DNA of 45,814 bases, taken from the NCBI GenBank assembly GCA_024697845.1, contig JAILRZ010000147.1, forward strand, positions 1 to 45,814, read 5' to 3'. The stretch comes from Eubacterium sp. Its GTDB lineage: Bacteria > Bacillota > Clostridia > Lachnospirales > Lachnospiraceae. The position numbers and the translations under genes were made by a program. Shown piece after piece: positions 4,113 through 17,405 of this stretch. The notes beneath the pieces are model-generated. The model had not been told where the DNA came from. It saw nothing but the letters and a program-made list of their open reading frames with translations, and did no database searches. The first letter of the stretch is position 1. Each line of letters opens with the position of its first letter.

Positions 4113-4820
4113 TCAGGGCGAAACCATGGAGATTCGCATTTTCTGAATTATTTTTTTCTCCATTCTTGATACCCGCACCTGGGATATTTTTAGTAATGTT
4201 CCCACCTCCTGTTGCGTTTTGTTTTCATAATAACGGAGTCGAATTATTTTTTGTTCTACTTTTTCCAATTTATCCAAAGCCTGCTGAATTGTCAGTCGGT
4301 CTTCAATCCGCTGTGTAAAGTCTTCTTCATTTCCTATTGTTTCCAAAAGAGTTCGTTCCGTTTCATCTTTTCGGTCATAAGACAACACTCCTCTCTCATA
4401 ACCGATTGCATCCACGATTTCTTCCTTTAAAAGTCCACTTTCCTTTGAAATCCAATCCAAATCCGGCTCCATCCCATACAGTTTCATATATTTTTGACGT
4501 GCGGCATTGATTTTCCCTTGATTTTCCTTTAATTTCCTGCCAACCTTCAACAATCCGTCATCTCGTAGAAATCGTCTGATTTCCCCCAAAATCATCGGAA
4601 CCGCATAGGTCGAAAAAGCCACATTAAAACGAACATCAAACCGGTCAATGGCCTTTATCAATCCAATACAACCAATCTGATATAAATCTTCCTTTTCATA
4701 TCCCCTGTTTTGAAAGCGATTAACAACACTCCATATAAGACCTGTATTCTCTTCCATTAGTTTTGCTCTGGATAATTTGTCCCCTGCATAAGCCTTTTTC
4801 ACTAATTCCATATGTTCCAT
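4113..4820 (-). CDS. sigF: RNA polymerase sporulation sigma factor SigF
   Basis: Sigma-F is the first forespore-specific sigma factor. It is held inactive by SpoIIAB and released by dephosphorylated SpoIIAA. Region 2 is clear at about residues 24-85 (ENTGLIWSVVNRF, YQIGCIGLIKAIDRFD, FSTYAVPMILGEIRRFLRDD). A region 3 segment follows, then region 4 with its helix-turn-helix (IIRLRYYENKTQQEVGTLL, QVRVSRMEKK). At 235 aa it is slightly shorter than Bacillus SigF (255). SigG is similar in sequence, but the position directly after spoIIAB identifies it as sigF (spoIIAC). The ribosome site is weak (AAGGCAG), and the start lies 3 bp after the spoIIAB stop. Confidence 0.95.
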   Translation of the reverse strand: MEHMELVKKAYAGDKLSRAKLMEENTGLIWSVVNRFQNRGYEKEDLYQIGCIGLIKAIDRFDVRFNVAFSTYAVPMILGEIRRFLRDDGLLKVGRKLKENQGKINAARQKYMKLYGMEPDLDWISKESGLLKEEIVDAIGYERGVLSYDRKDETERTLLETIGNEEDFTQRIEDRLTIQQALDKLEKVEQKIIRLRYYENKTQQEVGTLLKISQVRVSRMEKKIIQKMRISMVSP

Positions 4821-4823
4821 TGT

Positions 4824-5309
4824 TTACACTGCCTTTATCTTTTTTATTTTCTTTTTCATTGTGATTTTCGTCCCCGAACCCAGTTCTGATTCCACCTTCA
4901 ACTCATCCATGAACATTTCCATAAACATAAATCCCATTCCGGCTCTCTCCAGTTCCGGTTTCGTGGTAAACAGCGGTTCTTTTGCCTGTACAATATTCTC
5001 AATCCCTTTGCCAAAATCCTCCACTTCCAATGTAATCAGATTCTCTGTTCTTTTTTGTTTTCCGGAATCATCATATTTTTTCTGAATCAGTTTTCCTCGT
5101 AGTACAATCTTTCCTCCCTGTTCTTCATATCCGTGAATAATGGAATTTGTTACAGCCTCGGAAACAGCTGTCTTGATTTCATCTAATTCTTCAATGGTGG
5201 GATCCACCATCGTTAAAAATCCAGACACAACAATTCTTGCCAGTGCCTCGTTTTCCGACACCGCATCCATTTCAATTTGAACATTATTTTCAAACACTTT
5301 ATTTTCCAT
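4824..5309 (-). CDS. spoIIAB: Anti-sigma F factor / serine kinase SpoIIAB
   Basis: SpoIIAB binds and inhibits sigma-F and phosphorylates SpoIIAA. The GHKL ATPase motifs are present: the N box EAVTNSIIHGYEE, G1 DFGKGIENI and G2 RAGMGFMFMEMF with GSGTKITMKK. The ORF track starts at 5324. I prefer the internal ATG at 5309 (MENKVFENN), which has GAGGA upstream and overlaps the spoIIAA stop by 11 bp, indicating translational coupling. This gives 161 aa, a little longer than the 146 aa of the Bacillus protein. Confidence 0.95.
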   Translation of the reverse strand: MENKVFENNVQIEMDAVSENEALARIVVSGFLTMVDPTIEELDEIKTAVSEAVTNSIIHGYEEQGGKIVLRGKLIQKKYDDSGKQKRTENLITLEVEDFGKGIENIVQAKEPLFTTKPELERAGMGFMFMEMFMDELKVESELGSGTKITMKKKIKKIKAV

Positions 5310-5625
5310 AATTCCAGTCCTCATCCTTCTCCATTATTTTATACAACCCGGAAATGAGCAAAATCCGCTCAATTGTAGGGCTGACATTTCTTGCAATCAA
5401 TTTTCCCTTCGTTTTGATTCGTTTGAACCTCCCAATAATTGCCCCTACACCGGAGCTGTCCATAAACTCTGTGTTCTGAAAATCAAAAACAATTCCCTCT
5501 AACGGCGTAGATACCAAATACCAATCCGTTTGTTCCGTAACCTGTTTGGCACTGTGATGATCAAACTCCTTCGGTAATCTGACCACCAGCATATTTTCTT
5601 TGACTTGATACAAAATTTCTTCCAT
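5299..5625 (-). CDS. spoIIAA: Anti-sigma F factor antagonist SpoIIAA
   Basis: SpoIIAA is the STAS-domain anti-anti-sigma factor. When dephosphorylated by SpoIIE it binds SpoIIAB and frees sigma-F. The 108-aa protein has the STAS core with the phosphorylatable serine in FMDSSGVGAIIGRF. The start has AGGAGG just upstream. It is the first gene of the spoIIA-spoVA block. A terminator lies in the short gap before it, so its own promoter must overlap that hairpin or lie in the end of the TPR gene. I could not recognise a convincing sigma-H site. Confidence 0.95.
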   Translation of the reverse strand: MEEILYQVKENMLVVRLPKEFDHHSAKQVTEQTDWYLVSTPLEGIVFDFQNTEFMDSSGVGAIIGRFKRIKTKGKLIARNVSPTIERILLISGLYKIMEKDEDWNYGK

Positions 5626-5692: not shown

Positions 5693-7171
5693 TTATTCAA
5701 TATCTTCCAGATCTTCACCCTCATCACCGGAGTTTTCATCAGCTCCGCCATCCTCTGAGTCTCCACCATCAGATGCCTGGGTTTTTGATACACTGTAATG
5801 CTCTGAATCCGGGAACTTCTCAACAATCTTTTTAAAAGTATCCTTTGCCTTCTTTTCATCTCCGGAATTCTTATAAGCCCACGCCATATAATAATAAGCA
5901 TCATCATTATCTTTGTCCACTTCAATGCACTTCTTAAACTGAGAAATCGCTTTATCATAGTCCCCATTCTCATATGCGGAAAAGCCTTCATCATATGCAT
6001 TGGAAGCCATCTTGGATGATAATTCTTTTGTAAGTTTGTCATAAACAGAACGGAAATTATCCATATCCATTCCATCTTTTGTATTAATCTTATTTAATGA
6101 TTCAACACTCTTATCCGTGTTATTATTTAAATAAGCCTGAACCGCTGCAAGCAAATATTTATAATTATTGTCCACAGTTTTCTGATGCTTGTCAGCGCTT
6201 CCCTTCTCATCAGCAAGAATATCATAATCTTTCTTCAAAGCCGTATATTCGGATTCCAGAGAATCATAGGTAGAAGATTTAATTGCAATTTCACGCTTAT
6301 ATTCCACAGCTTGCTCGTTCTTTTCTTCCATAACCTTGGACATTCTGGCTGGTGTTACAACAAAGTATATCAGAGCTGCACCAATAAGCAGTCCTAAAAC
6401 CATATGAAGAATACTTTGTGCTCCGCTGACTGCCTCTTTGAAATTATTGTTTGGAATGATTACATCATTACCGCTTAAATATTCCCTGTCAACCAGTACT
6501 CCGCGAAGATTTCTTCTTCGTTCCATCCGTCCATCCGGATCCGTTTTCTTTTCTTCCTCTGCATATTCATTAATTTCTCTTAAATAACGAATACTTAAAG
6601 GATTACATTTATCAACCTTTAAGGATTTCTTAATGGTTCGTTTTGCACGTTCATACTGTCCCTGCTTCATATAAAGCAGACATAACAACTGAGAAGCCTT
6701 AACCAGTTTCGGATTCTGATTCAATACCTTCTTCAACTGAATAATCGCCATGTCATCAGTGTCATGCTTTGCATAGTTCAGTGCAACGTTAAATTTCTTG
6801 ATTGTTCTGTTAAGTTCATCAATCTTACTTTTTTCCTGCTGGATTGCTAGCAGATACTTGTCTGCCGGATTATTGTCCGGCTGAATATTGGTACTCATTA
6901 CCCATTCGGAAAATGCCTGAACGGTCTCACCCATTTCAAAGTAAACCAATCCCAAAAGATTTCTTGCATCAATGTTTCTCTTGTTCAATTTAACACTTCG
7001 ACGCAATGTATCCACAGCTCCGGATAAATCTCTGTTTTTGGCTTTTGTAAGACCGGCGTTATAGTAAGTATTTGACAATCTCACGATTCTTTTATAAACA
7101 CTCACGTCCATTCCACAGTTTCCGCAGAAATCACTGTTGGTCAGAACGCTACCACAGTTATAGCATATCAT
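5693..7171 (-). CDS. Zinc-ribbon, TPR-repeat single-pass membrane protein
   Basis: The function is unknown. Residues 3-19 form a zinc ribbon (CYNC...CGNCG, four cysteines). TPR-like helices follow at about 30-200 (LGLVYFEMGETVQAFSEW; LCLLYMKQGQYERAKRTI). One membrane segment lies at about 254-274 (LHMVLGLLIGAALIYFVV), then a coiled coil at 278-325. A second TPR block sits at about 340-455 (YENGDYDKAISQFKKCIEVDKDNDDAYYYMAWAY in part), followed by an Asp/Glu/Gly-rich tail. The likely topology is a cytoplasmic ribbon and TPRs with an external TPR domain, suggesting a scaffold. It overlaps or follows closely the 47-aa gene upstream (AGGTG ribosome site next to that gene's stop), so the two are probably co-translated. 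Confidence 0.85.
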   Translation of the reverse strand: MICYNCGSVLTNSDFCGNCGMDVSVYKRIVRLSNTYYNAGLTKAKNRDLSGAVDTLRRSVKLNKRNIDARNLLGLVYFEMGETVQAFSEWVMSTNIQPDNNPADKYLLAIQQEKSKIDELNRTIKKFNVALNYAKHDTDDMAIIQLKKVLNQNPKLVKASQLLCLLYMKQGQYERAKRTIKKSLKVDKCNPLSIRYLREINEYAEEEKKTDPDGRMERRRNLRGVLVDREYLSGNDVIIPNNNFKEAVSGAQSILHMVLGLLIGAALIYFVVTPARMSKVMEEKNEQAVEYKREIAIKSSTYDSLESEYTALKKDYDILADEKGSADKHQKTVDNNYKYLLAAVQAYLNNNTDKSVESLNKINTKDGMDMDNFRSVYDKLTKELSSKMASNAYDEGFSAYENGDYDKAISQFKKCIEVDKDNDDAYYYMAWAYKNSGDEKKAKDTFKKIVEKFPDSEHYSVSKTQASDGGDSEDGGADENSGDEGEDLEDIE

Positions 7172-10114: not shown

Positions 10115-10350
10115 CTTATATTATCTATGCTGGTACCGCTAAGAAGGGCGAATCAAACGCTCGCGGTACCACCTTCTTGATCACTCATCATATCCTGTAA
10201 CGGGGACGAACCGGAAATAACTACACACATCTGCTTCATCATTTCTGCTCCAAAGCTACCTTCACAACCACTACTTTACAGGGCTCCCACCATCCCCTGC
10301 TCTCTGGAAAAGGTTTGTTGCTACTCCTCTTAATCATTGCATTTCACATA
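10115..10350 (-). promoter_or_regulatory. T-box riboswitch (valine) controlling valS
   Basis: The conserved T-box sequence AAGGTGGTACCGCG is at 10162-10175 on the minus strand, inside an antiterminator-type stem AAGAAGG/CCTTCTT. The 5' part has the GAGTA K-turn-like motif and the AGAGAG bulge of Stem I. The likely specifier codon is GUA (Val), at 10257-10259 in the segment GAAGGTAGC. Uncharged tRNA-Val would stabilise the antiterminator and allow valS transcription. The position directly before valS agrees with the specifier. Confidence 0.92.
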
Positions 10351-10392: not shown

Positions 10393-11172
10393 TTAACTAT
10401 TGATTTCCACCACATACTGCTTTTTGCATTTTTTTACAAAATCCCCTTCATTCGCTTCATCCCATTCGGACTGGATATGAACTTTTCTCCTGATAATTTC
10501 AGAACGAAGGCGATTTACAACCGTATCTGAAATACCATATTTTTTCTGATCCATCTTCATTCGGTCTTCATCTCCGGCTAACAGAGAACATAATAACAGG
10601 GATTCCAGAGATTCACCGGAATTATTCAATCGGTAAGCACAACGAAATGCCGCTGCTGCTTCTTCATATTCAAATAATCTGGTATAAGCCACCGCAAGAT
10701 TATTATAAACATCTCCGTAAAAACGCTCTGGCAATTCTTTATTCACAGACTTTTTCAGGATGCTGTTATAGTAATTAATTGCCATGTTATATTTCCCATT
10801 ATCCATCAACATGTCTGCTTTTGCTTTGATTCGTTCTGCTGCTGTTTTTGAACTAAGCATTACCAAATGATTTTCCAGTTTTTCGGATTCCCGTTCAGAA
10901 TAGTATCCTGAATTTTTGATAACAAAGGCAACCTTTTCTCCCAGACTTCCTTTGTTTTCCATAATCGTTCGGATTCCCGCTGCAATGGCCGGCTGGTTCA
11001 ATTCATTTTCAATATAAAACAATAAACTTTCATTGAAGAAGCCTTCTTCCACCAGGTAGAGATAATTGTATAAATAGTATGCAAGTTCCTCTATAGAATA
11101 AATGTTTTTATTGATTTCTTTGATATAATATGGCTTTTCTGTATGTATCGTACATAATGCAATTTTATTCAT
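10393..11172 (-). CDS. TPR-repeat protein, third member of a DUF5717/DUF5716-type gene trio
   Basis: The function is unknown. The 259-aa protein looks cytoplasmic, with no signal peptide or membrane segment. Its N-terminal part (residues 1-100) is Tyr-rich and helical (YSIEELAYYLYNYLYLVEEGF). TPR-type helices follow at about 115-215 (ADMLMDNGKYNMAINYYNSIL; YNNLAVAYTRLFEYEEAAAAFRCAY). The C-terminus is basic and charged. It starts 14 bp after the stop of the Hsp70-like gene, with only a weak ribosome site, so it is probably the last gene of the rarA-led operon and may depend on coupling. Confidence 0.8.
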   Translation of the reverse strand: MNKIALCTIHTEKPYYIKEINKNIYSIEELAYYLYNYLYLVEEGFFNESLLFYIENELNQPAIAAGIRTIMENKGSLGEKVAFVIKNSGYYSERESEKLENHLVMLSSKTAAERIKAKADMLMDNGKYNMAINYYNSILKKSVNKELPERFYGDVYNNLAVAYTRLFEYEEAAAAFRCAYRLNNSGESLESLLLCSLLAGDEDRMKMDQKKYGISDTVVNRLRSEIIRRKVHIQSEWDEANEGDFVKKCKKQYVVEINS

Positions 11173-11186
11173 ATGATTTGCAAAAC

Positions 11187-12413
11187 TTACAGTTCGTAAA
11201 TTTTGCTCACCTCCATTCCTGAACTCTTAAATAATTCTCCAAAGCCTAAATCCTTGATGACAATTTCAAATCGTTTCTCATCGAGATATCTGAAATTCAC
11301 TTCGATTCTTGTAGTCTTTGGTGGTCTTTCCGGAAAGCCTGTAAGATCCAGTTCAAACTGATCCTTTTTCTGATTGAGCAAATCGTTGACTTCAAAAAAA
11401 GCTTTCGTTGGTTGTTCCATAATGCATTCTGCTCTGGATTTTGCCTGGGACCAGTAATCTCCCACATTAGAAAGTGTAATCGTATTATCTCGCTCTTTGT
11501 ATTTCACTGCCATAGTCACTTTTACACGGGTACGTCCCTTGCAGGAAATCAGATAATTTTCCAGATTTGGAATATGGAACAGTTCTTTTGCCGCAAAAGC
11601 CGCTCCTTTTACAATCAGATTATTTCCCTTAAATACTCTACGGTTTCCACACATAACAGATAATGATTTTGCCCAGTCTTCTTCATAAAAGCCGTCTCCG
11701 GACAAGTAAATTCCGGACACTACCTGATGTGCGAATTTTTCTTCCAGATATTTTGCAAAAATCTGATCCGCCTGTTTAGGATTTTCTTTTAACTGATCAT
11801 AGGTAAGCATCTCTGACAGATCATCCACATCCACATAGGCTACCGAAGGGCCTCTGCCATGAATCACCTTTAATCTTCTGTTCTCAAATTTTTCTTTAGA
11901 AAAATTAAAGAAGTACACCTGATTAATCCAGATATCCTTATTCTGATTCAACATATAATATACAAAACTTTCCGAATGGCTCAGCACACGGAAGTCTTCT
12001 TCCTCAAAGCCTAACAGGAATAACGCTTCGGAAATGATTTCCACCAGTTTCGGAGTCACTTCTTCCACCGTCACCAAAACATTTTTTACCGATTGTCCAC
12101 TTCTCTTTTTTGCCAAATGGATTAAATAAGAAAAATAAGACTGCATCATAAAATAGCTTTTTTCTTCTTCCTGCTGTTGAATAACTTCCGGTAAATCAAT
12201 GAAGAATTTGCACTGTGGATTTTCCTCTTTATTGACAGCTTCTTCTCCAACGTACCACTCTTTTAAATTTTCATGATAACACATCACTGATGGAATCAGA
12301 TAATTATCCTCTGTTCCAAAACTAATGGATTCCGGATTTCCGTTTTCATCAATGTAAGCGATTTGTGTATATTCTTTCGAAAAATCGATTCCTAAAATTG
12401 TTCCTTTTATCAA
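11187..12413 (-). CDS. DUF5716-like protein with an Hsp70/actin-type fold and altered phosphate loops
   Basis: I place this 408-aa protein in the DUF5716 family from memory; its function is unknown. Its order of motifs follows an Hsp70 ATPase domain. Residues 7-21 (LGIDFSKEYTQIAYI) sit where Hsp70 has phosphate loop 1, and 145-155 (SHSESFVYYML) where it has NEPTAAALAYG. Residues 167-184 (VYFFNFSKEKFENRRLKV) sit at phosphate loop 2, 234-245 (GIYLSGDGFYEE) at the adenosine motif, and 268-275 (VKGAAFAA) at the final helix. A beta-rich C-terminal segment from about 300 could match a substrate-binding domain. The glycines of loop 1 and GGGT of loop 2 are replaced, so ATP hydrolysis is doubtful. 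The start is TTG, behind a strong AGGAGG. Confidence 0.8.
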   Translation of the reverse strand: MIKGTILGIDFSKEYTQIAYIDENGNPESISFGTEDNYLIPSVMCYHENLKEWYVGEEAVNKEENPQCKFFIDLPEVIQQQEEEKSYFMMQSYFSYLIHLAKKRSGQSVKNVLVTVEEVTPKLVEIISEALFLLGFEEEDFRVLSHSESFVYYMLNQNKDIWINQVYFFNFSKEKFENRRLKVIHGRGPSVAYVDVDDLSEMLTYDQLKENPKQADQIFAKYLEEKFAHQVVSGIYLSGDGFYEEDWAKSLSVMCGNRRVFKGNNLIVKGAAFAAKELFHIPNLENYLISCKGRTRVKVTMAVKYKERDNTITLSNVGDYWSQAKSRAECIMEQPTKAFFEVNDLLNQKKDQFELDLTGFPERPPKTTRIEVNFRYLDEKRFEIVIKDLGFGELFKSSGMEVSKIYEL

Positions 12414-12427
12414 AACTTCCTCCTAAC

Positions 12428-15400
12428 CTACAAGAGCTTAAATAGTTCCTGTCCCGCAATTCTGCTTAGCTCGTAGGATTGCATAATCTCTCTTGCCGCA
12501 TCATTTCGCCCGATACTTCTGCAAATCATCATTCCGTTAATCATTCCAAAACGTGTTTCATCATTGTAAGCATTCTTATCCGTAATACGAACAGAATAAT
12601 TGTCTAGCACCTTTCCATTCGGAAAATCTTCAGAATATTCTTTGATGCTGTAATTGATTTCTTCTCCATAGAACATAATAATTTCTTTGGTAAAGATTCC
12701 CTGATAGATACTTCTCATTTCTTCCGTAACTCTCTTGGTAAATCCTTCTGCTGTCTTAATCTGATAATCAATATAAACTTTATGTTTTGGATTCGTACGG
12801 AAATCAATAATTGTTTTGTCAATCAAATCAAACGGTACTTTAAACCACTGATTAAACTGCTTGTAAAAATCCAGATTGATATGATTCTTTGCCAAATCTG
12901 CAATCAACCGCTTGGCAATTTCAATCTGTTCCTCTCCCAATTCTTTTTTCTTCGAAAGGATTTCCACAAAAGCAATCTTTGTAATCAATGTTGTCTGAAA
13001 TCCATTGCGATATTCCTGTTCCAAAATTTCCCAAATAATTTTCGGACACTGAACCTTCTTGATAAAATAATTAAATGTAACATAGGTGTAAAATGCCCTT
13101 CGAACCATGCCATTGGTTGGTCCTTTGATATATTCCTGATAGACATTATAAATTGCTTCTGTCGTGCTTGCCTCAAAAATGTATTGAATCAGTAATCGTT
13201 CTGCCAGTGTATTATCTGAAATTTTCTTAGCCTGAATTGCCAAGAACAACTGCTGCAGTTCCAGGGTACCCGCTTCATAATACTTTCCTAAATAAATCAG
13301 GATTGCGTCTTCTCTACAACCATTTCGAAATACTACCGCACAAATTTCTGCAAGAAGTGCATTTTCTTTCATCTCCTCCGCTTCCACTAACTGAATACAC
13401 ATCTTTTCCAACAGACTCTTCTCAATTCCTTCATAACCGTAGCGAACAATATAAGGGAATACCATTTCTATCAGATTCCGCTCAATTAAAATCTCCATTA
13501 CTTTATTTCTGGATTGAATTGTTAGTTCATCCATATTAAGAGATAAAATATAAATATCCAAATCTCCCTGATCAAATCCTTTGTAGTAATAATCCACAAG
13601 AAATTCCTTTAATTCCAATTCATACTGTCTGGAAATCTTTGGCATTTCCACTGCTCGTTTTAATTCTACCACTTCTCCCTGATGGTCCAATGGATGCTTC
13701 ATAATTTCTTCCACATACCGTAGCACTTCCAAGTCTTCCGTTTTCTGTGGTCCCATCTTCATTTCAAGGGTTAATGGTTTCATTTCATATTCAATTTCGG
13801 ACCAGATATTACCTTCCGCATCCATGAAAAGTATTACCGGATTTTTTGTATATAGTAATACCTCTGCGTAGCCACCGGATACTGATACTAACTGAACCTG
13901 CTCCATTTCCTTGTGACAAACAAGAACTGATTTAATATTTTCATTTTGAACCTTAATTTCATAAGTATTCAGTACCTGGGATAACTTGCTTTCCATATCA
14001 TCCACAATAAAATCCCTGGTCAAGACTGCATTATAAATAACCTGTAAGAACCGATTGTTCCTTCCCATAAGCAACTGTTCAGTCACATACTTTTCCAATC
14101 CGTCCCGATATTTTGCAAAAATAGAATCTTCTTTCAAATTCGTAATCAGATTTGCATAGAAATAATCTTTCTTTTCTACCAATGTATCTGTTCCATAAGA
14201 GAAATATTTATAAGCATCCTTTTCAAACGGCTTCATAGATGTCGTATCTGCAGTATAGATATAGTATTCATAAAGATTTGTAATCTTCAAGTCCTTCTGA
14301 ACACCTTTTTCCAACCATTCAAAGTACTTTGTCTGCCTTTTCTCTCCATTAATAATCATGGTACAGATTGCTCCCAGTACTTCATCCTGCTCTGTATCCT
14401 CATAAAAGCGGGTCAAAATCTGGAAATAGTTTTGATGCCATCCTTTTTCTTTGACCATCAACGCTGCGGTCTGCTTCGCCATTTCCGCATTTGCCATATG
14501 ATACTTCCCGGCGAAGTTTAACACCTGTATTTCAAACTTATTGATAATGCGAAGAAGTTCCGGCTGTTTTGCAATAATATTTGCCGCCTCAAAATACATT
14601 ACCGGACTATAACAGCCTTCCGTAAATAGACGCTTAATCATGGTATATTTCAAACTTGGATTTTCTTCAAATCGTTCATCCATATAAAAGAGCATCCATA
14701 AAAGCTGCCATGTATCGTGACCGCCCTCATAATACTTTTTGATTTCTTCTTTAATTTCACTCGTGTAATTCGGACTATTTTTCTGCAATGTCTTTAAATA
14801 CAAATAGAAGCAATATTCTTCCACACTGTAGTTTTTGTGCAAAGCTAAAGTATCCGATACTTCATTGAGATAAGTAGCTGCAACTTCCTTTTGGTTTTGT
14901 ACAATGGAAATATGCGCTTTTGCCAGCAATCCTACCACATCTTTATTGTTCAGTGACAAACGCTCATCTGCCATTCGTTTCATTTCATCCATCCACTGGA
15001 AACTATCAATTTTTCCTGTACGGAAATCCAAATAGTTTTTCACAAATCCCATGTTACTTTTCTTTTCACTGAGATACGCTTCAAGAGATTCTTTCCGATT
15101 CACAATGACAATATCATAGATAATACAATCATGAACGGTCTTAAAAGTAATTCGTCCGTGATTACTTCCGCCATGAAGTTTTGCCGCATTAATATAATAA
15201 CGATATTCTGCGATTCGTCCGTTAAATTCCTCACTGCTGATTTGTTCTTTGCAGTTATAAAGGAAATCCCCTTCCACAGTAACATCTACATCTACATAGC
15301 CCCAGGTATTTTTATGAATCTCCACAACGTCTGCATAGTTATTTTCAATATCCGTAAATTCCTTGAAGTTTTCTTTGGTGCGAATATTAACACGCTTTTT

Positions 15401-15961
15401 TAATTCTTTTCCAACAAGAAATTCTTCTAAGGCAATATGACGATTATGATTTTTCATTAGTTGCGTATACAAGGTATAACCAAAGCTATCGGTCTTTAAG
15501 AAATATCTTTTAAACTCTTTAGACATAAACAGTAACAACGCTTCGTCATAGCTTTCCTGAACCAAATGCACAAAATCCTTCAGGCTTTCCACATTGCCAT
15601 TGGTGGAAAACACTTCTGATTTTTTAATGGTAATGCCGAAAGGAATTGCATAATCTCCACCGGTAGTAATCACACTGATAGTTCCACTGCAAACCTGTCC
15701 TTCATATAAATTTCTGGCACTGATTTTATAATGTAATTTATTATTGACACCATAAAACTGATTGTTTTCAAAGGTCACATGTTCATCTGTTGAAAATGCT
15801 ACTCCTTTTACCGGCAATCCGTTTTTTCCGACAATCGATATTTCTCCTTCTGCAGTTTCACCACAACACAATTCCACTGCAATTCTGTTTTCTGAAATTT
15901 CCACATCAGGAGTTTCGTAATTTGCATTTCCTGATGCCAGTTTTTCCATCAAAAGTTTCAC
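12428..15961 (-). CDS. Large DUF5717-like protein of unknown function
   Basis: This 1177-aa protein appears to be cytoplasmic, with no signal peptide or membrane helix. Residues 15-115 form a beta-rich, Ig-like domain (GEISIVGKNGLPVKGVAFST; GTISVITTGGDYAIPFGITI). A very long helical region at about 130-1040 resembles a repeat solenoid, and a mixed alpha/beta end follows (HKVYIDYQIKTAEGFTKRV; INYSIKEYSEDFPNGKVLDN). I recognise it as DUF5717-like by size, layout and its DUF5716-like partner. The start is GTG with GAGGT upstream; an ATG four codons later is an alternative. It sits between rarA (28 bp) and the Hsp70-like gene (14 bp), so one transcript is likely. Confidence 0.8.
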   Translation of the reverse strand: MKLLMEKLASGNANYETPDVEISENRIAVELCCGETAEGEISIVGKNGLPVKGVAFSTDEHVTFENNQFYGVNNKLHYKISARNLYEGQVCSGTISVITTGGDYAIPFGITIKKSEVFSTNGNVESLKDFVHLVQESYDEALLLFMSKEFKRYFLKTDSFGYTLYTQLMKNHNRHIALEEFLVGKELKKRVNIRTKENFKEFTDIENNYADVVEIHKNTWGYVDVDVTVEGDFLYNCKEQISSEEFNGRIAEYRYYINAAKLHGGSNHGRITFKTVHDCIIYDIVIVNRKESLEAYLSEKKSNMGFVKNYLDFRTGKIDSFQWMDEMKRMADERLSLNNKDVVGLLAKAHISIVQNQKEVAATYLNEVSDTLALHKNYSVEEYCFYLYLKTLQKNSPNYTSEIKEEIKKYYEGGHDTWQLLWMLFYMDERFEENPSLKYTMIKRLFTEGCYSPVMYFEAANIIAKQPELLRIINKFEIQVLNFAGKYHMANAEMAKQTAALMVKEKGWHQNYFQILTRFYEDTEQDEVLGAICTMIINGEKRQTKYFEWLEKGVQKDLKITNLYEYYIYTADTTSMKPFEKDAYKYFSYGTDTLVEKKDYFYANLITNLKEDSIFAKYRDGLEKYVTEQLLMGRNNRFLQVIYNAVLTRDFIVDDMESKLSQVLNTYEIKVQNENIKSVLVCHKEMEQVQLVSVSGGYAEVLLYTKNPVILFMDAEGNIWSEIEYEMKPLTLEMKMGPQKTEDLEVLRYVEEIMKHPLDHQGEVVELKRAVEMPKISRQYELELKEFLVDYYYKGFDQGDLDIYILSLNMDELTIQSRNKVMEILIERNLIEMVFPYIVRYGYEGIEKSLLEKMCIQLVEAEEMKENALLAEICAVVFRNGCREDAILIYLGKYYEAGTLELQQLFLAIQAKKISDNTLAERLLIQYIFEASTTEAIYNVYQEYIKGPTNGMVRRAFYTYVTFNYFIKKVQCPKIIWEILEQEYRNGFQTTLITKIAFVEILSKKKELGEEQIEIAKRLIADLAKNHINLDFYKQFNQWFKVPFDLIDKTIIDFRTNPKHKVYIDYQIKTAEGFTKRVTEEMRSIYQGIFTKEIIMFYGEEINYSIKEYSEDFPNGKVLDNYSVRITDKNAYNDETRFGMINGMMICRSIGRNDAAREIMQSYELSRIAGQELFKLL

Positions 15962-15989: not shown

Positions 15990-17315
15990 CTATTCTGATT
16001 CTTCCTGAATCTTTCTTAAATGTTCCTTAACTTTGACTTCATATCCTAAATCTCCCGGCTCATAGAACACACACTCTGTTAAGCCGTCCGGAAGATACTG
16101 TTGTTTCACATAATGATTTGGATAATCATGAGCATATTTGTATCCCACACCGTGTCCCATTTTGGCCGCCCCACCATAATGAGCATCCTGCAAATGTGTC
16201 GGTACCGGAGCTGTCACCGTACTTTTTACTTTCTCCATTGCTGAAAATACTGCATTGCAGGAAGCGTTACTCTTTGGTGCCGTGGCCACATAAACCACTG
16301 CTTCCGATAAAATAATTTGGGACTCTGGCATTCCCACCTGGTGAACTGCCTGTGCTGCAGCGTTTGCCACAACCAACGCCTGGGGATCTGCCATACCTAC
16401 ATCTTCTGCCGCACAAATCATGATTCTTCTTGCGATAAAATCCACGCTTTCACCGGCATATAACATTTTAGCCAGATAGTACACTGCCGCATCCGGGTCC
16501 GATCCTCGCATACTTTTGATAAATGCGGAAATGGTATCGTAATGATTATCTCCACCTTTATCATACCGCAATGCTCTTTTTTGTACGCACTGTTCAGCTA
16601 CTGCCAAGGTAATATGAATCTTTCCATCTTCAGAAGGATCCGTTGTCAAAATACCAAGTTCTACAGCATTCAACGCTGTTCTTGCATCTCCATTGGCAAT
16701 TTGTGCCAGGAATCGTCTGGCCTCCTCACTGATATCTGCCCGGTACACCCCCATGCCTCGTTCTTCATCATAAACAGCCCGTTCAATCAGGCTTTCTATA
16801 TTTTCAACCGATAAAGGTTTGAGTTCAAAAATAATGGATCTGGAAATTAACGCCGTGTTCACTTCGAAATAGGGATTTTCTGTGGTTGCTCCTATCAATA
16901 TCACGGTTCCGTCTTCCACAAAAGGAAGAAGATAATCCTGCTGCCCCTTATTGAAACGATGAATCTCGTCCACAAACAAAATCGTCTTACGTCCATTCAT
17001 TGCCATGGTCTGTTTTGCCTGTGCCACCACATTTTCCATATCCTTCTTTCCGGAAACTGTGGCATTCAACTGAGTGAACTCCGCACTGGTTGTATTGGCA
17101 ATGACTTTTGCCAAGGTTGTTTTCCCTGTTCCCGGTGGTCCATAAAAAATAACGGAACTGATTTTGTCCGCTTTGATTGCCCGGTAAAGTAATTTATCTT
17201 TTCCGATAATATGTTCCTGCCCCACCACTTCATCCAAAGTTCTCGGACGCAGCCTGCTGGCAAGAGGCGATTCTTTTTCGCTATTCAGATTTCTGGCATA
17301 ATCAAATAAATCCAT
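15990..17315 (-). CDS. rarA: Replication-associated recombination protein A (AAA+ ATPase)
   Basis: RarA (MgsA) is a clamp-loader-like ATPase acting at stalled replication forks. The Walker A (FYGPPGTGKTTLAK), Walker B (ILFVDEIHRFNKGQQD) and sensor 1 (LIGATTENPYFEVN) motifs are present, and the tail carries the family's tetramerisation domain (HYGGAAKMGHGVGYKYAHDY). The ORF track begins at a TTG; the ATG at 17315 with CAGGAG upstream is the better start and gives 441 aa. It is divergent from gltA and heads the DUF5717/DUF5716/TPR gene run. Confidence 0.96.
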   Translation of the reverse strand: MDLFDYARNLNSEKESPLASRLRPRTLDEVVGQEHIIGKDKLLYRAIKADKISSVIFYGPPGTGKTTLAKVIANTTSAEFTQLNATVSGKKDMENVVAQAKQTMAMNGRKTILFVDEIHRFNKGQQDYLLPFVEDGTVILIGATTENPYFEVNTALISRSIIFELKPLSVENIESLIERAVYDEERGMGVYRADISEEARRFLAQIANGDARTALNAVELGILTTDPSEDGKIHITLAVAEQCVQKRALRYDKGGDNHYDTISAFIKSMRGSDPDAAVYYLAKMLYAGESVDFIARRIMICAAEDVGMADPQALVVANAAAQAVHQVGMPESQIILSEAVVYVATAPKSNASCNAVFSAMEKVKSTVTAPVPTHLQDAHYGGAAKMGHGVGYKYAHDYPNHYVKQQYLPDGLTECVFYEPGDLGYEVKVKEHLRKIQEESE

Positions 17316-17405
17316 AATCAACTCCTGTTTTATATTTCTCCCTATTGTTTAGAGATAATAATCCACGGTTATTCTACCACAAATCCTTTAAGACTTCTAT
17401 GCCAT

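What the first reader, a model, noticed from the sequence alone, without database searches (positions are those of the whole stretch)
10393..15961. Three-gene DUF5717 / Hsp70-like DUF5716 / TPR unit downstream of rarA: a candidate undescribed system
A 1177-aa protein (Ig-like N-domain and a very long helical solenoid), an Hsp70-fold protein and a TPR protein are packed with 14-bp gaps behind rarA. This composition (chaperone-like core, giant scaffold, TPR adaptor) suggests a cytoplasmic complex. I know of no assigned function for these families. The link to rarA may be only positional.
Basis: partly seen in the sequence, partly recalled or inferred. Interest (0 to 1): 0.7.

Follow-up and report, generated by a model that had tools for sequence, protein, structure and literature searches.

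The report
Reduced pseudo-Hsp70 scaffold operon
Three neighbouring genes found in almost all examined Lachnospiraceae gut bacteria encode a giant scaffold, a dead Hsp70-like protein and a small adaptor, and they appear to be the stripped-down remnant of a larger, undescribed eight-gene machine with four Hsp70-type proteins that related bacteria still carry.

Summary
Window 10393-15961 (minus strand) encodes DUF5717, DUF5716 and a TPR protein, with 14-bp gaps, behind rarA. The order is conserved in every Lachnospiraceae locus whose contig reaches it. The rarA link is positional: adjacent in the window's genus, but in only 3 of 17 other genera.

The main finding lies outside the window. In 10 other families of the same order, the DUF5717 and DUF5716 relatives sit in a conserved cluster: DUF5717 split in two, Hsp70-A, a GrpE-domain protein, Hsp70-B, Hsp70-C, Hsp70-D with a von Willebrand A domain, and TPR. 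Some members are split across contigs. DUF5716 descends from Hsp70-B. Its predicted fold is lidless DnaK (pLDDT 92), but it lacks every tested ATPase motif and about 70 residues between two of them. The window's unit is therefore a reduced, ATP-independent derivative. A second family (f16) was also reduced, to DUF5717 plus Hsp70-B. No paper found describes either form.

Most likely role: a cytoplasmic scaffold on which the dead Hsp70 passively binds one client or partner, as Ssz1 does in the yeast ribosome-associated complex. This role is inferred. Distribution argues against sporulation, rarA-linked repair and mobile defence.

The parts
12428..15961 (-). DUF5717 giant scaffold protein, 1177 aa, GTG start
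   Evidence: Pfam PF18984 E 7.2e-264 and PF18983 E 7.2e-73; AF2 model pLDDT 87.4, pTM 0.58
15590..15904 (-). first Ig-like domain of DUF5717 (residues 20-124)
   Evidence: AF2 secondary structure; Foldseek best matches are chains of ciliary central-apparatus structures, plus the CEP192 SPD-2 domain, at low TM-score
15410..15583 (-). helical module between the two Ig-like domains (residues 127-184)
   Evidence: AF2; conserved in the extended ~400-aa protein
15098..15385 (-). second Ig-like domain (residues 193-288)
   Evidence: AF2, alignment A1
13970..15085 (-). first helical solenoid (residues 293-664)
   Evidence: AF2; solenoid matches to Ski complex, NatA and Paf1 complex chains at low TM-score; weak SRP72 profile match E 0.033
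13775..13966 (-). inserted beta domain (residues 666-729)
   Evidence: AF2
12821..13735 (-). second helical solenoid (residues 743-1047)
   Evidence: AF2
12587..12817 (-). C-terminal beta-sandwich (residues 1049-1125), followed by two helices
   Evidence: AF2
11187..12413 (-). DUF5716 pseudo-Hsp70, 408 aa, TTG start
   Evidence: PF18980 E 2.6e-91; AF2 pLDDT 92.4, pTM 0.88; Foldseek DnaK 7kru E 2.3e-20; tree joins it to Hsp70-B
11565..12413 (-). degenerate actin/Hsp70-type nucleotide-binding domain (about residues 1-283): GIDFSKEYT in place of GIDLGTTNS; about 70 residues missing between the phosphate-2 and adenosine motifs, probably subdomain IIB
   Evidence: motif table; 57-78 residues against 141 in DnaK and 135-150 in Hsp70-B
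11190..11555 (-). lidless substrate-binding beta domain (about residues 287-408) with conserved DLGFGE..SG end
   Evidence: 15-27 residues after the last aligned SBD-beta motif against 156 in DnaK; D388, G390, G392 invariant across DUF5716 and Hsp70-B
10393..11172 (-). TPR adaptor, 259 aa: conserved N-terminal domain (residues 1-105) plus a shortened TPR array
   Evidence: TPR_1 E 1.1e-7; orthologous to the ~385-aa TPR protein of the extended locus
15990..17321 (-). rarA (mgsA), a positional neighbour and not a component
   Evidence: MgsA_C E 2.9e-71; adjacent in the window's genus but in 3 of 17 other genera of the family

Best explanation
The unit is a reduced, vertically inherited descendant of a larger multi-Hsp70 gene cluster. 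Shown: homology, gene order, loss of the ATPase motifs and lid, and independence from rarA and sporulation. Inferred: DUF5717 is the backbone; DUF5716, an Hsp70 that can no longer hydrolyse ATP, docks on it through its folded NBD; its SBD-beta acts as a fixed binding module for one client or partner; and the TPR protein is the adaptor to that client, or to DnaK, the only Hsp70 left in the window's genome. The closest working analogue is Ssz1 in the yeast ribosome-associated complex, a lidless Hsp70 that does not hydrolyse ATP and works as a subunit of a larger assembly. Confidence by step: ancestry and pseudo-Hsp70 about 0.85; physical complex about 0.7; passive client-binding or holding about 0.35.
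For: Ancestry: the 8-gene cluster is complete or nearly so, in one order, on single contigs of five families and in pieces, split across contigs or cut by contig ends, in most of the others. Pfam names its members DUF5717_N, DUF5717, HSP70, GrpE, DUF5716_C, HSP70-VWA and TPR. In two of these families (G038, G041) it lies directly upstream of the same gene M2 and of valS as the unit does in the window's family. Tree: DUF5716 is one clade (99) sister to one Hsp70-B (99). Dead ATPase: Hsp70-A, C and D keep GID(F/L)GTTN, K70, the GGGT phosphate-2 loop and GGS; Hsp70-B and DUF5716 have lost these, and DUF5716 also about 70 residues. Core: family f16 (G050) keeps only DUF5717_N, DUF5717 and Hsp70-B, with DnaK as its only strong Hsp70 match. 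Coherence: the three proteins evolve together, about 3 times faster than RarA and ValS. Core status: DUF5717 in 36 of 36 and DUF5716 in 35 of 36 family genomes, including 1.1-1.6 Mb genomes that lack spoIVA. Analogue: Ssz1 lacks the lid and binds but does not hydrolyse ATP (PMC7083937); Ssz1-containing structures are among the Foldseek hits.
Against: No complex was predicted or measured. The lidless SBD-beta might only hold the subunit in place, with no client. Pairwise distances are not independent, and RarA also correlates with the unit once ValS is controlled for (0.66-0.91). DUF5717's overall Foldseek matches are weak (TM-score by query length at most 0.15), so its solenoid suggests no specific function. 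The full cluster has no J-domain protein that I could find.
Confidence: 0.45

Rival explanations
1. The unit is a purely structural assembly scaffold: Hsp70-fold and solenoid proteins form a platform for an envelope or cytoplasmic structure, and SBD-beta serves only in subunit contacts.
For: All four extended Hsp70s lack the helical lid. An upstream protein with 1-3 hydrophobic stretches and a coiled coil (M1) precedes the cluster in six families. DUF5717 has Ig-like and solenoid domains.
Against: The full cluster keeps three Hsp70s with intact ATPase motifs and a GrpE-domain protein, which implies an ATP cycle acting on something. M1 is not adjacent in the window's family.
Confidence: 0.25
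2. It is a co-chaperone module for DnaK, with the dead Hsp70 acting in the manner of Hsp110 as exchange factor or substrate presenter.
For: DnaK is the only Hsp70 left in the window's genome; Hsp110 (Sse1) structures are among the Foldseek hits.
Against: About 70 residues of the Hsp70-B nucleotide-binding domain are missing, the lid is absent, and family genomes keep the ordinary DnaK system.
Confidence: 0.12
3. It is a conflict or anti-phage system related to the GTPase-centred GAP1-N2 systems with HSP70 and GrpE described by Kaur et al. 2020 (PMC7159879).
For: Similar parts list: HSP70, GrpE, a second HSP70, TPR and an Ig/FNIII-like domain; fast evolution; weak PADLOC candidate PDC-M61B match to the Hsp70s.
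Against: No GTPase or GAP1 domain. Nearly universal in the family, in a fixed place near valS with no variable effector seen. No PADLOC hit to DUF5717 or DUF5716. No plasmid match for DUF5716. The two phage-collection records examined carry rarA and M2 (one also valS) and look like misfiled chromosome.
Confidence: 0.08
4. It is part of rarA-linked replication or recombination, or of sporulation.
For: rarA is 28 bp upstream in the window, and spoIIA-like genes lie about 5 kb downstream.
Against: rarA is adjacent in only 3 of 17 other genera. The unit is present in genomes without spoIVA and absent from many with it.
Confidence: 0.04

Closest known systems
Ribosome-associated complex subunit Ssz1 (yeast; PMC7083937)
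   Same: Hsp70 fold without SBD-alpha lid, no ATP hydrolysis, SBD-beta kept, works as a subunit of a larger assembly; Ssz1 structures are Foldseek hits
   Different: Ssz1 still binds ATP and pairs with a J-domain protein, Zuo1; DUF5716 has also lost the nucleotide-site motifs and about 70 residues of the NBD, and is paired with a solenoid scaffold. No common descent within Hsp70 is claimed.
GAP1-N2 GTPase-centred systems, HSP70/GrpE theme (Kaur et al. 2020, PMC7159879)
   Same: HSP70, GrpE, second Hsp70, TPR and Ig/FNIII-type domains in one neighbourhood
   Different: No GTPase, no GAP1, no variable effector; fixed position near valS; four Hsp70s of which one carries VWA; not described in that paper's text as read here
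Canonical DnaK-GrpE chaperone system
   Same: Hsp70 fold; GrpE-domain protein in the extended locus
   Different: The extended locus is additional to the normal dnaK genes; all four Hsp70s lack the lid; the window's version keeps no active member
Pfam DUF5717 (PF18984, PF18983) and DUF5716 (PF18980)
   Same: Full-length members
   Different: Pfam assigns no function; the kinship of DUF5716 with Hsp70-B and the extended locus are added here

Membership tests
DUF5717 (PF18984 + PF18983) | profile match over the whole length above the curated cut-off | tested here: met
   878 and 246 bits against cut-off 25
DUF5716 (PF18980) | profile match above the curated cut-off | tested here: met
   306 bits against cut-off 34.7
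Hsp70 superfamily (fold) | NBD plus SBD-beta fold | tested here: met
   AF2 pLDDT 92; Foldseek DnaK E 2e-20, TM-score 0.64 by query length
Functional Hsp70 chaperone | phosphate-1, K70, phosphate-2 and adenosine motifs | tested here: not met
   motifs absent in DUF5716
Functional Hsp70 chaperone | helical lid (SBD-alpha) | tested here: not met
   15-27 residues after the last aligned SBD-beta motif against 156 in DnaK
Ssz1-like pseudo-Hsp70 (as an analogue) | lidless Hsp70 without ATP hydrolysis | tested here: met
   by sequence motifs and model only; biochemistry not done
Ssz1-like pseudo-Hsp70 (as a member) | partner J-domain protein such as Zuo1 | tested here: not met
   no DnaJ domain in the unit or in the extended proteins scanned with Pfam
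GAP1-N2 GTPase-centred conflict system | GTPase and GAP1 proteins in the neighbourhood | tested here: not met
   no such Pfam match among the proteins scanned
Anti-phage defence system | significant match to a known defence family | tested here: not met
   no PADLOC hit to DUF5717 or DUF5716; only weak generic hits elsewhere
Anti-phage defence system | protects against phage | not testable with these tools
   needs a laboratory test
rarA repair module | conserved linkage to rarA | tested here: not met
   adjacent in 3 of 17 other genera
Three-protein complex | physical interaction | not testable with these tools
   only single-chain prediction was available; pairwise distances of the three proteins correlate 0.93-0.97

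The most novel reading that the evidence does not exclude
A previously undescribed multi-Hsp70 machine, confined as far as sampled to one bacterial order: three lidless Hsp70s with intact ATPase motifs (one fused to a von Willebrand A domain) plus one pseudo-Hsp70, a GrpE-domain exchange factor, an Ig-solenoid scaffold and a TPR adaptor. Its central pair, scaffold plus pseudo-Hsp70, was kept when the ATPases were lost in two lineages (Lachnospiraceae and f16), giving an ATP-independent core whose ancestral, ATP-driven form can still be studied in relatives.
Probability: 0.6. Interest if true: 0.8.

Novelty: new variant of a known kind. Interest (0 to 1): 0.6.

Why it matters
Lachnospiraceae are a major family of gut and rumen bacteria, and this operon of unknown function is in essentially all family genomes examined, including small ones of 1.1-1.6 Mb. 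It is also a natural experiment in chaperone evolution. Related families keep a cluster with active Hsp70 ATPases, while this family kept the scaffold and a dead Hsp70. Comparing the two could show what an Hsp70 fold does without its ATP cycle, and what such a multi-Hsp70 cluster is for.

Tried and rejected
rarA as a functional partner: rejected, not conserved outside the window's genus and three others. M2, a 2-TM coiled-coil gene downstream of TPR in many genera, as a fourth component: rejected. It is found in many families that lack the unit, often beside valS, and is missing from the window's genus. Sporulation: rejected by the spoIVA profile. Mobile or phage origin: no plasmid match for DUF5716. 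Four phage-collection hits to DUF5717 were found; the two examined carry rarA, the unit and M2 (one also valS), so they look like misfiled bacterial contigs. Sequence searches of the PDB gave nothing useful. The PADLOC candidate PDC-M61B matches the generic NBD of Hsp70-C and D only. Literature: the two DUF names occur in no relevant paper of the library; no paper combined Hsp70, von Willebrand factor, GrpE and Lachnospiraceae. The Hsp70-D search over the class used a very strict cut-off with no positive control in the sample, so it says nothing. In the first mirror-distance run some RarA rows were confused with other AAA proteins; it was repeated with score filters.
Full report
What is there. 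The window's minus strand carries rarA (15990-17321), DUF5717 (12428-15961, 1177 aa), DUF5716 (11187-12413, 408 aa) and a TPR protein (10393-11172, 259 aa), then a T-box leader (10141-10346) and valS. The gaps inside the unit are 14 bp. Pfam confirms both DUF families far above their cut-offs. The unit occurs once in the genome.

Conservation. Of 60 related genomes, DUF5717 is in all 36 of the same family and in 12 of 24 other families of the order; DUF5716 is in 35 and 11 of these. Record titles of close relatives name Eubacterium and Lachnospiraceae, so the family is taken to be Lachnospiraceae. In every family locus whose contig reaches, the order is DUF5717, DUF5716, TPR on one strand. No match was found outside the order in samples of the class and phylum (one hit at E 9.7e-4 with stops inside was discounted). 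That is a sample, not a census. rarA is immediately upstream in all 20 loci of the window's genus with upstream sequence, but in only 3 of 17 other genera.

The larger locus. In other families of the order the same proteins lie in a longer cluster, in one order: DUF5717_N (~400 aa), the DUF5717 solenoid (~900 aa), Hsp70-A (~559 aa), a GrpE-domain protein (~280-645 aa), Hsp70-B (~520 aa), Hsp70-C (~546 aa), Hsp70-D with a C-terminal VWA domain (~690 aa), and TPR (~385 aa). It is whole or nearly whole on single contigs of G038, G041, G053, G057 and G058. In most of the other families it is in pieces, split across contigs or cut by contig ends, and G040 shows only the first half. Six families add an upstream protein, M1, with 1-3 hydrophobic stretches and a coiled coil. 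These Hsp70s are additional to the ordinary dnaK genes.

DUF5716 is a pseudo-Hsp70. AlphaFold2 gives a confident model (pLDDT 92.4, pTM 0.88) whose best PDB matches are lid-truncated DnaK (E 2.3e-20), with Ssz1 and Hsp110 also listed. In an alignment with one DnaK and the four paralogues, Hsp70-A, C and D keep the phosphate-1 loop and the phosphate-2 and adenosine motifs, and nearly all keep K70. Hsp70-B keeps only a degraded phosphate-1 loop and a GGGFE-type adenosine motif. DUF5716 keeps none intact. DUF5716 also has 57-78 residues between the phosphate-2 and adenosine motifs where DnaK has 141 and Hsp70-B 135-150; from general knowledge of the fold, this is probably subdomain IIB, which GrpE touches. 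Hsp70-A, B, C and DUF5716 all end shortly after SBD-beta, and Hsp70-D has VWA there, so none has the lid. In the tree DUF5716 is one clade (99) and joins the Hsp70-B of L064 (99); the branches are long and the tree is a quick one.

DUF5717 is a scaffold. The model (pLDDT 87, pTM 0.58) has two Ig-like domains around a helical module, two helical solenoids separated by a beta domain, and a C-terminal beta-sandwich. The Ig part resembles chains of ciliary central-apparatus structures and the CEP192 SPD-2 domain; the solenoids resemble chains of the Ski, NatA and Paf1 complexes, all at low TM-score. None of the three proteins has a hydrophobic segment.

A second reduction. Family f16 (G050) has DUF5717_N, DUF5717 and Hsp70-B and none of the other genes beside them; DnaK is its only strong Hsp70 match. 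If independent, as the separate genes and the tree position suggest (the tree position is unsure, because of a long branch), this marks scaffold plus Hsp70-B as the core.

Function, by exclusion and analogy. The unit is kept in small genomes without spoIVA and absent from many genomes that have it, so it is not a sporulation system. It is kept in a fixed neighbourhood near valS, lacks GTPase, GAP1 and effector genes, and gave no plasmid match for DUF5716, so a mobile conflict system like those of PMC7159879 is unlikely. The three proteins' pairwise distances agree (Pearson 0.93-0.97), and they evolve about three times faster than RarA or ValS; fast co-evolution fits mutual contacts but is not proof. 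M2 is a valS neighbour and is not counted in. The best working analogue is Ssz1 of the ribosome-associated complex: lidless, binding but not hydrolysing ATP, acting as a subunit (PMC7083937). I therefore favour an ATP-independent scaffold in which the dead Hsp70 is a fixed binding module. Ancestry and loss of ATPase motifs are shown by sequence; the complex and the client are inferred.

Novelty. The families are in Pfam without function, and the library searched holds no paper on them. The extended locus and the descent of DUF5716 from its Hsp70-B appear to be new. I file it as a new variant of a known kind, a pseudo-Hsp70 assembly. The eight-gene machine itself is the more novel object.

Noticed in passing
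L062, L063, L064, L065, L074 (whole or nearly whole on one contig); L066-L073, L075, L076, L160 (pieces): Eight-gene multi-Hsp70 cluster with a GrpE-domain protein and an Hsp70-VWA fusion, apparently undescribed; the main lead for follow-up.
   Followed up: yes
L065:4195-5643, L066:5625-6932, L067:5770-7155, L072:6748-7743, L074:18726-19946, L075:69-473: M1: protein with one N-terminal hydrophobic stretch, up to two more near residues 115-170, and a coiled-coil tail, directly upstream of the extended cluster; topology reminiscent of MotA/ExbB-type proteins, but no Pfam match.
   Followed up: partly
L080:2487-3986, L062:15937-17145, L153:6813-8009: M2: conserved 2-TM coiled-coil protein of unknown function, often just upstream of valS across the order, lost in the window's genus.
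   Followed up: partly
window 10141-10346: T-box leader upstream of valS, so valS has its own control separate from the three-gene unit.
   Followed up: no
window 5693-7171: Zinc-ribbon protein with TPRs and one TM segment between valS and the spoIIA-like genes, also seen at the same place in relatives.
   Followed up: no
L161, L162 (MT835486.1, MT835988.1): Records filed as 'Bacteriophage sp.' that carry rarA-DUF5717-DUF5716-TPR-M2 (valS in L161), i.e. probably misfiled bacterial chromosome.
   Followed up: partly
window 4113-5625: spoIIAA/spoIIAB/sigF-like genes close to the unit in the window; also near the extended cluster in L070.
   Followed up: no
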